DNA of 64,000 nucleotides from Roseiflexus sp. (GTDB lineage Bacteria; Chloroflexota; Chloroflexia; Chloroflexales; Roseiflexaceae), in NCBI GenBank assembly GCA_025062325.1, contig JANXAL010000020.1:1-64000 (forward strand), written 5' to 3'. The translations under genes were made by a program, and so were the position numbers. The notes under the pieces were generated by a model that was given only the letters and a program-made list of their open reading frames with translations, made no database searches and had not been told where the DNA came from. Of the stretch, positions 25,194 through 60,028 are shown piece by piece (within the stretch, counting starts at the first letter, position 1; every line of letters begins with the position of its first letter).

Positions 25194-25360
25194 TCCGCTT
25201 CTCACCTCTTGCCTCTCACCTCATCGCCTCTCGCCTCTCGTCACTCATCACTCATCACTCATCACTCGTCACTCATCACTCGTCACTCATCACTCGCCTC
25301 ATCTCCTCGCACCTCTGGCCTCATGCCTCGTGCCCCTCTTGCCTCACGCCTCACGCTCTT
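25194..25360. repeat. Heptamer-word stretch with eight in-phase RTCACTC words
   Basis: TCACCTC/TTGCCTC words precede eight exactly in-phase words at 25240-25295, all ATCACTC or GTCACTC. GCCTCAT-type words follow up to the stop of the next gene. The same RTCACTC word returns at 59182-59342. Confidence 0.85.
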
Positions 25361-26342: not shown

Positions 26343-27506
26343 ATGTCAAACACAATTGGCGTTGGTCTGGTCGGCTACAAGTTCATGGGCAAGGCGCACT
26401 CGAACGGGTACCGCCAGGTTGCCGCGTTCTTCCCGGATGTCGCGTTGCGCCCGGTGATGAAGGCGATCTGCGGGCGCGACGAGGCGGCAGTGCGCGCAGC
26501 CGCAGCGCAGTTTGGCTGGGAGGGGTACGAAACCGACTGGAGAAAACTGGTGGCGCGCGACGACATTCAGTTGATCGATGTCTCGACTCCGGGCGACACG
26601 CACGCCGCAATCAGCATCGCCGCCGCCGAGAACGGCAAGCACGTCTTCTGCGAGAAACCGCTGGCGAACACCCTCGCCGAGGCGCGGCAGATGCTCGATG
26701 CGGTGCAGCGCAACAAGGTTGTCGGCATGGTCAACTTCAATTACCGCCGCGTCCCGGCGGTGCAGCTCGCCAAATCGCTGATCGACTCCGGGCGCCTGGG
26801 GACGATCTACCACTGGCGCGCCGTCTATTTGCAGGACTGGATTATGGACCCGAACTTCCCGCTGGTCTGGCGTTTGCAGAAGGATGTCGCCGGTTCGGGA
26901 ACTTTGGGCGATCTCGGCGCGCATATCATCGACCTGGCGCGCATGCTGGTTGGCGAAATCACTGAGGTGACGGGGCTGACCGAGACGTTCATCAAGCGCC
27001 GACCGGTGCTCGCAGCGACAACCGGCGGGTTGGGCGCGGCGGCTGGCGCAGAGATGGGAGAGGTGACGGTCGATGATGCGGCATTGTTCCTGGCGCGCTT
27101 CGCCAACGGCGCCGTCGGCACATTTGAAGTGACGCGCTTCGCCAAGGGACGCGCGAACTACAACAGTTTCGAGATCAACGGCAGCAAAGGGAGCCTGCGC
27201 TTCAACCTCGAGCGCATGAATGAACTCGAGGTGCTGCTCGACGACGACATGCCCGATGTCGCCGGGTTCCGCACGGTGCTGGTCACCAACGGCAATGCGC
27301 ACAAATACCTGAGCGCCTGGTGGCCCGCCGGGCATATCATTGGCTGGGAGCATACCTTTACTCACGGCATTTACGATCTGCTGAACGGCATTGCCGCTGG
27401 AGTCTCGCCCGCGCCGACCTTCGAGGACGGTCTGCGCTGCCAGGCGATCCTCGACGCCGTCGAGCGATCCGCCGGGAGCAAACAGTGGGTGGCGCCGGAG
27501 TATTAG
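26343..27506 (+). CDS. Gfo/Idh/MocA family sugar oxidoreductase
   Basis: 387-aa NAD(P)-dependent dehydrogenase of sugars or inositols. The Rossmann motif is [12 protein letters not shown] (8-19) and the hallmark EKPLA begins at 104, with the family's [16 protein letters not shown] block containing the proposed catalytic His/Asp. ATG 26343 is chosen as it directly precedes the Rossmann strand and has AAGGGG upstream. It starts a same-strand block with a TIM-barrel isomerase and an SDR, a set commonly used to oxidise or epimerise an uncommon sugar. Confidence 0.9.
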
Positions 27507-27582
27507 AGGCGAGAGGTGAGAGGTGAGAGGCGAGAGGCGAGAGGTGAGAGGTGAGAGGTGAGAGGTGAGAGGCGAGAGGGGG
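27506..27582. repeat. Eleven in-phase GAGGYGA heptamers right after a stop codon
   Basis: The run begins on the last base of the TAG stop and continues for eleven 7-base words, ten being GAGGCGA or GAGGTGA and the last GAGGGGG. Its reverse complement (TCRCCTC) is the word seen at 25194-25239. A REP-type remnant (TAGAGACGATGCATTGCACCGTCTC) follows at about 27594-27620; the rest of the gap to 27815 shows nothing clear. Confidence 0.9.
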
Positions 27583-27815
27583 GCACGGTTGAAGGTAGAG
27601 ACGATGCATTGCACCGTCTCCATAATCGTTGCACCGCAACGTTGCCAAAACCAATGGCATTGCACGTCGAACGTCGAACGTATGCGTGACCTTTGATGTC
27701 TCAGTCGGTGATTCCGGAGGCGTTCGAGGTATGTTGCTGCCGGAACGAACCGTGCCAGCGCTACGCACGCGGATTGACCTCAAAGGTCTGCGCCACGAAT
27801 GCAGGAGAAGAGTCT

Positions 27816-58328: not shown

Positions 58329-58543
58329 CACACGGATTCACACGGATGCGGCGGATGGACACGGATTCTGGTGTGAGGGCGACCGATCCGCGAAAATCCG
58401 TCCCGATCCGTGTCAATCCATGTGCTCCCAAATGTAACCTGAAGAGCACACGGATGCACACGGATGCGACGGATGGACACGGATTCTGATGTGAGGGCGA
58501 CCGATCGTGAAAATCCGTCCCGATCTGCGTGCTCTCTACCGCA
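58329..58543. repeat. Duplicated cacggatg intergenic repeat
   Basis: Two units of about 95-100 bp (58328-58429 and 58447-58540) agree at most positions: AGCACACGGAT, CACACGGATGCG, CGGATGGACACGGATTCTG, TGTGAGGGCGACCGATC, AAAATCCGTCCCGATC and GTGCTC. Each unit starts with AGCACACGG and ends with a TGTGCTC-like inverse. Fills the gap between the glucan synthase gene and the Uma2 remnant. Noncoding. Confidence 0.85.
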
Positions 58544-58996
58544 TCAAGGACGAGGGGGAAACAGGCGATCAACAGCGATTTCGATCCGCGGCAGCGTTTC
58601 CGCACGCAGGATGCTGCCGCTCCGATATGTTTGAACCTGCGTGTACTGACCTTCTGCCGGGCGGGTGTACTGCTCGACCGCCTGCTGACGCACGTCAATG
58701 ATCCACACTTCGACAATCGCCGCCTGAGCATACAGCGGGAGTTTCACGGTGCGATCATAGTCGAGCGAGGTATCCGCGACTTCGATGATCAACAGCACAT
58801 CCTGCGCGCACGGCAGCGTCTCCTCGTAGTCGCCCGGATGAGGACACAGCACGGCAATGTCCGGTTGCACTTCAGTGTCATCGCTCAGGCGCACGCTATT
58901 TTGCACGCTCACAATCGCATCGTCGCCCGCTGCGGGCAACAGGAGGCGATTCAGCCGGTTGACGACCGCCATATGCGGCGGACCGATCGGACTCAT
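58544..58996 (-). pseudogene. Uma2 family endonuclease-fold protein lacking its N-terminus
   Basis: About 150 codons from an internal ATG match Uma2 (DUF820): MSPIGPPHMAVV, VQPDIAVLCP, LIIEVADTSLDYDRTVKLPLYAQ and VEVWIIDVRQQ, i.e. the D, ExA and K of the PD-(D/E)XK fold are kept. The usual first 50 residues (with the ELIDGEI block) are missing; only IYR remains and the frame upstream (to 59179) reads unrelated sequence. It is therefore probably a 5'-truncated gene; it could still make a shortened protein. Confidence 0.7.
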
Positions 58997-59181
58997 ACGA
59001 TAGATCGCGGCTGCCAGCGCCAACAGCGCCAGCGGTGCGCCGTGGCATTCGGCGCTGCTGTATTTCGCCGCTGCCCGATCATCAACGATGATGATTCCGC
59101 AGACCTTTGCCGGTTCCTCCCAGATGTGAGCGAGACACTCACGCTCCCAGGAGCGCCATGATGAGCGAACAGTCAGCACTC

Positions 59182-59342
59182 GTCTCTCATCACTCGCCCC
59201 TCGCCGCTCATCACTCGTCTCCCATCACTCGTCCCTCGCTACTCATCGTTCGTCCCCCACTACTCATCACTCATCACTCGTCACTCGCCACTCATCACTC
59301 GTCCCCCACCACTCATCACTCATCACTCATCACTCGTCCCTC
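59182..59342. repeat. 23 consecutive in-phase heptamers (RTCACTC family)
   Basis: From 59182 to 59342 the DNA divides into 23 words of exactly 7 bases without a slip. ATCACTC occurs nine times and the others are variants (GTCCCTC, GTCCCCC, GCCACTC, ACCACTC, GCTACTC, ATCGTTC and others). All end in C, position 1 is always A or G. The array stops about 70 nt before the MBL gene start. Confidence 0.95.
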
Positions 59343-59410
59343 ATTTGACACCCCTCATCACGATCCGCTAAGATGCAGAGGCACACGGTCTTTGCTCAAG
59401 CGGAGCGCCT

Positions 59411-60028
59411 ATGGAATTGCGCACCAGAGCGGTCGGTCCCTGGCCCATGAACAGTTACGCGCTGGTTTGCCCGACGACGCGCCACAGCGTCCTGATCGAT
59501 CCCGGGGCGGAACCGGACGAACTCGCTGCGATGCTCGACGGCACAACGCCAGTTGCCATTCTGCTGACGCATACGCACCCGGATCATATTGGCGCACTCG
59601 AGGAGATGCGCAGCAGGCTCGGTGTACCGGTCTTCGCCCATCCCGGACCCTACGCCGCTGATGGGGAGTTGCGTGTGGATCGAACCCTGGCGCACGGCGA
59701 CGTTGTGACCGTTGGCGCCTCAACGATTCGAGCCTGGCACACTCCCGGTCACACCGCCGATATGGTGTGCTACCTGGTCGATGGCGCACCGATTGCCATC
59801 GTCGGCGATACCCTGTTCGACGGCGGACCGGGGCGCACCTGGTCGGCAGAGGATTTCCGCACCACGCTGGCGACGCTACGCACGATTGTGCTGACCTGGA
59901 GTGATGACACAATCTGCTATCCCGGTCACGGTCCGTCCTTCCGGCTTGGCGACCGGCGCGCCGCTATCGAGCGCTTCCTGGCGCATGCGCCTGAAGGATT
60001 CTTTGGCGATGCAACGTGGGACATGTGA
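59411..60028 (+). CDS. MBL-fold hydrolase (glyoxalase II-like)
   Basis: 205 aa. Metal motif THTHPDHIG near 56-64, then TPGHTADMVCY, GDTLFDGGPG and PGHGPSF, the complete set of the hydroxyacylglutathione hydrolase-like branch. A compact size without the C-terminal helical domain of GloB fits the YcbL-like group. It starts a same-strand series with PrsW (9-nt gap), Uma2 (4-bp overlap) and AguB/AguA. Substrate unknown, probably a thioester. Confidence 0.9.
   Translation: MELRTRAVGPWPMNSYALVCPTTRHSVLIDPGAEPDELAAMLDGTTPVAILLTHTHPDHIGALEEMRSRLGVPVFAHPGPYAADGELRVDRTLAHGDVVTVGASTIRAWHTPGHTADMVCYLVDGAPIAIVGDTLFDGGPGRTWSAEDFRTTLATLRTIVLTWSDDTICYPGHGPSFRLGDRRAAIERFLAHAPEGFFGDATWDM

What the first reader, a model, noticed from the sequence alone, without database searches (positions are those of the whole stretch)
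59182..59342. Twenty-three heptamers in a row with varied words and no phase slip
The 161 bases divide exactly into 23 seven-base words. Words differ at one to three positions (position 1 is A/G, position 7 always C, position 4 free), yet no insertion or deletion has occurred. Simple slippage would give identical copies and frequent frame loss; here the register is kept while the letters vary. That suggests either selection on spacing (protein or DNA-bend periodicity) or an unknown copying process that writes 7-base units. Cyanobacterial STRR heptamers are a known precedent for 7-bp tandem repeats, but with less word variation.
Basis: seen in the sequence. Interest (0 to 1): 0.8.

Follow-up and report, generated by a model that had tools for sequence, protein, structure and literature searches.

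The report
Degenerate seven-base repeat array in Roseiflexus
This stretch is a real run of 23 similar seven-letter DNA words, one of many such runs between genes in these hot-spring bacteria; it is best explained by ordinary DNA slippage, copying between runs and mutation, although in the genus the runs often begin right at the stop codons of genes and face one way, which does not seem to have been described.

Summary
In detail: 161 bases read as 23 heptamers without a slip, far beyond chance. No 7-base writer and no selection on spacing is needed. Whole-word gain or loss keeps register by itself. Sister arrays do contain 8-base words, and five related arrays differ between species by multiples of 7 plus or minus 1-2. 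This array is specific to its lineage: it abuts the -35 box of a conserved promoter whose relatives lack the array. It belongs to a known kind, dispersed degenerate heptanucleotide satellites.

What looks new is the placement. In Roseiflexus many arrays begin at a gene's stop codon, with the purine-rich, stop-codon-bearing strand in sense. Opposed neighbours are almost always purine array first, pyrimidine array second (12:0, 8:1, 3:0; 35:3 in loci from other phyla). The bias is strongest in words that contain stop codons (66:3, against 6:3 without), so survivorship is the simplest explanation.

The parts
59182..59342 (.). 23-word heptamer array (pyrimidine strand on +, purine strand GAGTGAY/GAGTGGC... 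on -)
59168..59181 (.). two further in-register words (AACAGTC AGCACTC), probable degenerate start of the array
   Evidence: read from the sequence
59345..59350 (+). -35 box TTGACA of a promoter conserved in the genus, 2 bp after the array
   Evidence: same box in G009, G010, G013 without the array
59352..59361 (+). CCCTCATCAC in the promoter spacer: one array word, in the array's register; also present in G010, which lacks the array (possible seed)
59369..59374 (+). -10 box TAAGAT (18-bp spacer)
59411..60028 (+). metallo-beta-lactamase-fold hydrolase gene downstream of the promoter
   Evidence: Pfam PF00753 E 4.4e-20
58544..59179 (-). Uma2-family gene (Pfam: putative restriction endonuclease), divergent neighbour; start codon uncertain; absent from this gap in relatives
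25219..25301 (.). sister array of the same words (CTCATCA/CTCGTCA)
27500..27589 (.). sister array (GAGAGGT/GAGAGGC), purine strand on +, starting at the stop codon of a + strand ORF
   Evidence: d3 = -7, sense

Best explanation
The tract is a non-coding degenerate heptanucleotide satellite. Arrays of this sort start from a short stretch that already resembles a word, grow and shrink by gain and loss of whole seven-base words (replication slippage or unequal exchange), gather point mutations that are mostly transitions, and exchange word strings with other arrays in the same genome, so that each genome has its own small lexicon. Constant register follows from in-register copying, because a word can only be gained or lost where neighbouring words align. 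Slips do occur but are rare. Placement follows tolerance: arrays persist in intergenic DNA, often starting at a stop codon, where a sense strand with stop codons in many of its words keeps the gene end safe; this window's array sits just upstream of a conserved promoter. Shown: period, register, lexicon, lineage specificity, strand bias, non-7 length changes in relatives. Inferred: slippage or unequal exchange as the molecular event, seeding, and tolerance rather than function as the cause of the strand bias. Why seven is preferred over six or eight is not explained here.
For: Lag 7 dominates. The same words recur at 45 places of G000, and non-uniform 35-bp strings are shared between unlinked G009 arrays in 18 pairs against 3.5 in word shuffles. 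Multi-word repeats: word-order structure in 21 of 48 arrays, for example a 12-word period in L016. Transition excess 2.2 to 3.0 to 1. Array absent at the orthologous gap while the promoter is conserved. After the stop codon at G009 1177580, the relatives G010 and G011 have one near-word (TGAAGGTTGCATG, TGAAGATTGCATG) where G009 has a run of about eight words; at the window's locus G010 has CCCTCATCAC in the promoter spacer without an array. Length differences G009/G010 of 27, -13, 57, 30, 29 bp = 7n plus or minus 1-2.
Against: Word order in this array is not significantly structured (p 0.19), and many arrays look like random strings of a few variants, which pure local duplication does not predict. 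Some word positions never vary (position 7 here), which could mean constraint. Seed and array could equally be a contracted and an intact state. The strict preference for 7 is not explained by slippage in general.
Confidence: 0.68

Rival explanations
1. The arrays are functional gene-border elements: after a gene the purine strand is in sense and a pyrimidine array follows, so RNA running into a gene from outside reads the pyrimidine strand, which could load Rho and stop readthrough and antisense transcription.
For: Purine array first, pyrimidine array second in opposed pairs: 12:0, 8:1, 3:0 in Roseiflexus and 35:3 in loci from other phyla; pairs rare in divergent gaps (3 of 46 short-gap pairs with a called context, against about a fifth of background gaps); arrays recur after the same stop codons in several species with different words; G000 has Rho.
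Against: Polarity weakens when words lack stop codons (6:3 against 66:3), which Rho would not care about. Two of the three main G009 lexicons (TCGGTTC, CGGCTAT) are not C-rich and G-poor. Many arrays fill short same-strand gaps. In G009 the two arms of a pair share almost no words (0.004 against 0.215 between loci), so a hairpin terminator is unlikely there. The window's array is upstream of a promoter that is conserved without it in relatives.
Confidence: 0.15
2. An enzyme writes seven-base units, for example a reverse transcriptase or end-extending polymerase that adds a purine-rich 3' strand to both sides of a break before joining.
For: The geometry fits: purine strand pointing into the gap from both sides, different words on the two sides in G009, genome-wide lexicons, nearly exclusive period 7.
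Against: 8-base words are amplified inside arrays (36 spacings of 15). The bias depends on stop codons and is strong at gene 3' ends only: 123:20 at 3' edges against 62:36 at 5' edges (sums). No candidate enzyme or template was sought beyond this or identified.
Confidence: 0.06
3. Selection on 7-bp spacing for a DNA- or RNA-binding protein that reads one position set per word.
For: Position 7 is C in 23 of 23 words and position 5 in 22 of 23; the GAGAAC and GAGTGA families almost never slip.
Against: The array is absent from orthologous gaps with the same promoter; words differ completely between families and species; related arrays carry 8-base words and lengths of 7n plus or minus 1-2; the 7-bp phase does not match the 10.5-bp helix.
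Confidence: 0.07
4. Protein-coding heptad repeat.
For: The + strand has an open frame through the array (59107-59661).
Against: That frame starts inside the opposite-strand Uma2 ORF and runs out of frame over the hydrolase gene; 7 is not a multiple of 3, so the frame rotates; nothing comparable exists at the orthologous gap.
Confidence: 0.01

Closest known systems
Cyanobacterial short tandemly repeated repetitive (STRR) heptamers and the degenerate heptanucleotide repeats of the Nostoc tRNA-Leu(UAA) intron P6b
   Same: Seven-base unit, degenerate words, copy-number differences between strains, opposed arms (PMC3488679)
   Different: In Nostoc the arms pair into a hairpin; in G009 the arms of a pair share almost no words. 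STRR words are known to me only from memory
Chloroflexus aurantiacus (GATAGRA)n satellites (PMC6749651)
   Same: Heptamer satellites scattered through a genome of the same phylum; G009 has a related-looking GATAGCC family
   Different: One species-specific family; gene-end placement and strand bias were not seen in the passages of that paper read here
Beggiatoaceae TAACTGA repeats (PMC4679880)
   Same: Intergenic heptamer arrays in many copies; G009 has the word TAACTGA in places beside TAGCCGA
   Different: One fixed word, mostly 2-6 copies, mostly upstream of start codons; here varied words and gene 3' ends
Xanthomonas (GGGNATC)n and Nostoc GGGGA(C/T)T repeats (PMC4692102), and the heptamer excess among long simple repeats reported in 2007 (cited there)
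   Same: Heptamer units over-represented between genes, heterogeneous words, some opposed pairs
   Different: Those are G-tract repeats studied as quadruplex formers; the words here have no regular G3 tracts

Membership tests
Dispersed intergenic heptanucleotide satellites (STRR-like) | Tandem seven-base unit, many copies, beyond chance | tested here: met
   genome-wide
Dispersed intergenic heptanucleotide satellites (STRR-like) | Many intergenic loci per genome sharing words | tested here: met
Dispersed intergenic heptanucleotide satellites (STRR-like) | Copy number differs between strains | tested here: inconclusive
   Array absent in relatives; sister arrays differ in length between species; no second strain of this species was available
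Cyanobacterial STRR proper | The canonical cyanobacterial words | not tested
   Words here are RYCACTC; canonical words known to me only from memory
Perfect long simple sequence repeat | Uninterrupted identical units | tested here: not met
   At most three identical words in a row
G-quadruplex heptamer repeats (GGGNATC type) | Regular G-tracts of at least 3 | tested here: not met
   Complement of most words is GAGTGAY without GGG
CRISPR array | Repeats of about 23-47 bp with unique spacers | tested here: not met
   Period 7 without spacers
Rho-dependent gene-border terminator | Terminates transcription | not testable with these tools
   Rho gene present; no RNA data

The most novel reading that the evidence does not exclude
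Across many bacterial phyla, heptamer arrays are strand-polarised gene-border elements, purine strand pointing out of the gene, maintained or written by a shared mechanism that sets the unit at seven bases, and not merely tolerated satellites.
Probability: 0.15. Interest if true: 0.8.

Novelty: new variant of a known kind. Interest (0 to 1): 0.5.

Why it matters
Heptamer excess in bacteria has been known since 2007, with only a guess (polymerase contact length) as to why seven. Roseiflexus is an extreme case: 80 arrays of 49 bp or more in 1.6 Mb of one genome (so hundreds per genome by extrapolation), next to no other short period, distinct lexicons per species, and a strong strand bias at gene ends. 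That makes the question testable in a genus with a closed genome: are arrays merely tolerated there, or do they do something at the ends of transcripts?

Tried and rejected
Hairpin or cruciform as the reason for opposed pairs: rejected for G009, where arms share almost no words, but not for other taxa, where within-pair sharing is high. CpG deamination as sole source of word variants: CG/TG and CA/CG are common changes, but CC/CT is as common, so not pursued. A cross-phylum shared lexicon: the pattern RYCACTC x4 hits at least 118 stretches in many phyla, but most of those arrays are uniform, and with few possible heptamer classes and very many genomes this may be coincidence of common arrays; not claimed. 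Strand bias as an artefact of ORF calling: partly. Where the array overlaps the ORF end the bias is largely forced (38:0); with the stop before the array it is 27:12 (p 0.024) within 200 bp and absent beyond (11:11). Polarity was weak in the GAACYRR set from viral contigs (14:10).

Full report
What is there. Bases 59182-59342 are 23 heptamers in one register, with C at position 7 in all 23 and A or G at position 1. Lag-7 identity is 0.675; in 2000 dinucleotide-preserving shuffles the highest value at any lag from 4 to 12 was 0.52. The array ends 2 bp before a TTGACA-18-TAAGAT promoter of a metallo-beta-lactamase-fold hydrolase gene (59411-60028; PF00753). A Uma2-family gene lies on the other side, on the - strand (PF05685). 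The spacer of that promoter continues the array's register and holds CCCTCATCAC.

Relatives. In three same-genus genomes (G009, G010, G013) the hydrolase gene and its promoter are conserved, but neither the array nor the Uma2 gene is in the gap. G009 is one contig of 5,801,598 bases, which from memory is the length of Roseiflexus sp. RS-1; I use that name in places. G010 has CCCTCATCAC in the same spacer without an array. The array is therefore specific to this lineage and not needed for the promoter to be kept; the spacer word may have been its seed (inference).

Genome-wide. In 1.6 Mb of G009 the number of segments with 75% identity over 42 bp is 76 at lag 7 and 0, 4, 1, 0 at lags 5, 6, 8, 9. 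In 0.39 Mb of unselected G000 it is 6 at lag 7 and at most 2 at other short lags. G009 arrays fall mainly into three lexicons (AAGGTTG, AACYRRG, AGCCGAT); G000 is rich in GAGTGAY and GAGAGGY. The window's own words hit 45 places in G000 and fewer in its sister species.

How it changes. Neighbouring words differ mostly by transitions (835:373 in G009, 425:144 in G000). Word order is structured in 21 of 48 arrays, though not in this one (p 0.19). Non-uniform 35-bp strings are shared by 18 pairs of unlinked G009 arrays against 3.5 in word shuffles, so arrays exchange or descend from one another; in the smaller G000 set the excess is not significant (2 against 0.67). At five gene ends that carry arrays in G009, cut by eye at shared anchors, the G010 length differs by 27, -13, 57, 30 and 29 bp, that is 7n plus or minus 1 or 2. 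In the GTTGAA family non-7 spacings recur (36 spacings of 15, that is one 7-base and one 8-base word), whereas the GAGAAC and GAGTGA families hardly slip. The lack of a slip in this array needs no special cause: 32 non-consensus letters, many of them copied, correspond to perhaps ten independent substitutions, and with the usual excess of substitutions over indels in bacteria (general knowledge) about one indel or fewer is expected.

Placement. With my own ORF model, arrays in G009 lie close to gene 3' ends with the purine-rich strand in sense 32 to 4; in G000 it is 13 to 1. Many start at the stop codon itself, and arrays recur after the same stop codons in sister species with different words. 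Part of this is forced, because the purine strand carries stop codons (0.083 per base against 0.006 on the other strand): an array overlapping an ORF end can only be seen that way. Where the stop precedes the array the bias is 27:12 within 200 bp and 11:11 beyond. Seven-base periodicity in the first 45 bases is found after 26 of 423 G009 gene ends, against 4 of 224 stretches further into the gap. The window's own array is not at a gene 3' end: it lies between two 5' ends, with the purine strand pointing away from the hydrolase gene, as in 9 of 9 G000 arrays within 60 bp of a 5' end.

Polarity. Adjacent opposed arrays within 600 bp are purine first, pyrimidine second in 12:0 (G009), 8:1 (G000), 3:0 (other Roseiflexus loci) and 35:3 (118 loci of other genomes, many phyla, fetched by this array's words). 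In viral-contig sets it is 48:17 for this array's words and 14:10 for another family. At gaps up to 100 bp it is 66:3 when both arms have stop codons, 21:3 when one has and 6:3 when none has. Opposed pairs are rare in divergent gaps. In G009 the two arms of a pair share almost no words (0.004 against 0.215 between loci), so they are not hairpins; in other taxa they often are complementary. One rule covers most of this: the array next to a gene's 3' end has its stop-bearing strand in sense. Survivorship explains that rule with the fewest assumptions; a role at transcript ends remains possible. Rho is present in G000, but two of the main lexicons are not Rho-like.

Known background. Heptamers are reported as the most abundant class among long simple repeats of most bacterial genomes, with polymerase contact length as a proposed reason (2007 study cited in PMC4679880 and PMC4692102). 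Chloroflexus aurantiacus has a (GATAGRA)n family (PMC6749651). Degenerate heptanucleotide repeats that vary in copy number and fold into a hairpin are described in Nostoc (PMC3488679). I found no paper on these arrays in Roseiflexus, though the library is partial.

Verdict. The nearly exclusive period 7 and the gene-end polarity are worth following.

Noticed in passing
L027 495-577; L010 12100-12142: CCCTAAC heptamer arrays resembling plant-type telomere words lie next to other heptamer arrays in G000.
   Followed up: no
window 58446-58484 and the gene end in L168 (G010): A 10-bp repeat (GCACACGGAT-like words, also CACGGATGAA in G010) with its own varied words sits near the Uma2 gene; a word-like repeat of another period.
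   Followed up: no
L012 13078-13164; L014 16570-16759: Contig ends of G000 with long G or C runs, probably assembly artefacts; filtered out of the later counts.
   Followed up: partly
L016 15822-16025: Array with a 21-bp, three-word unit and a 12-word period at 99% identity, a recent multi-word expansion.
   Followed up: partly
G042, G046, G055, G080: The GAACYRR word set of G009 recurs in scattered genera of the order with the same variants, reversed-pattern control near zero; patchy descent or transfer.
   Followed up: partly
L206-L323, L468-L586: Opposed heptamer arrays with short gaps and complementary arms are common in many phyla and in contigs labelled viral.
   Followed up: partly
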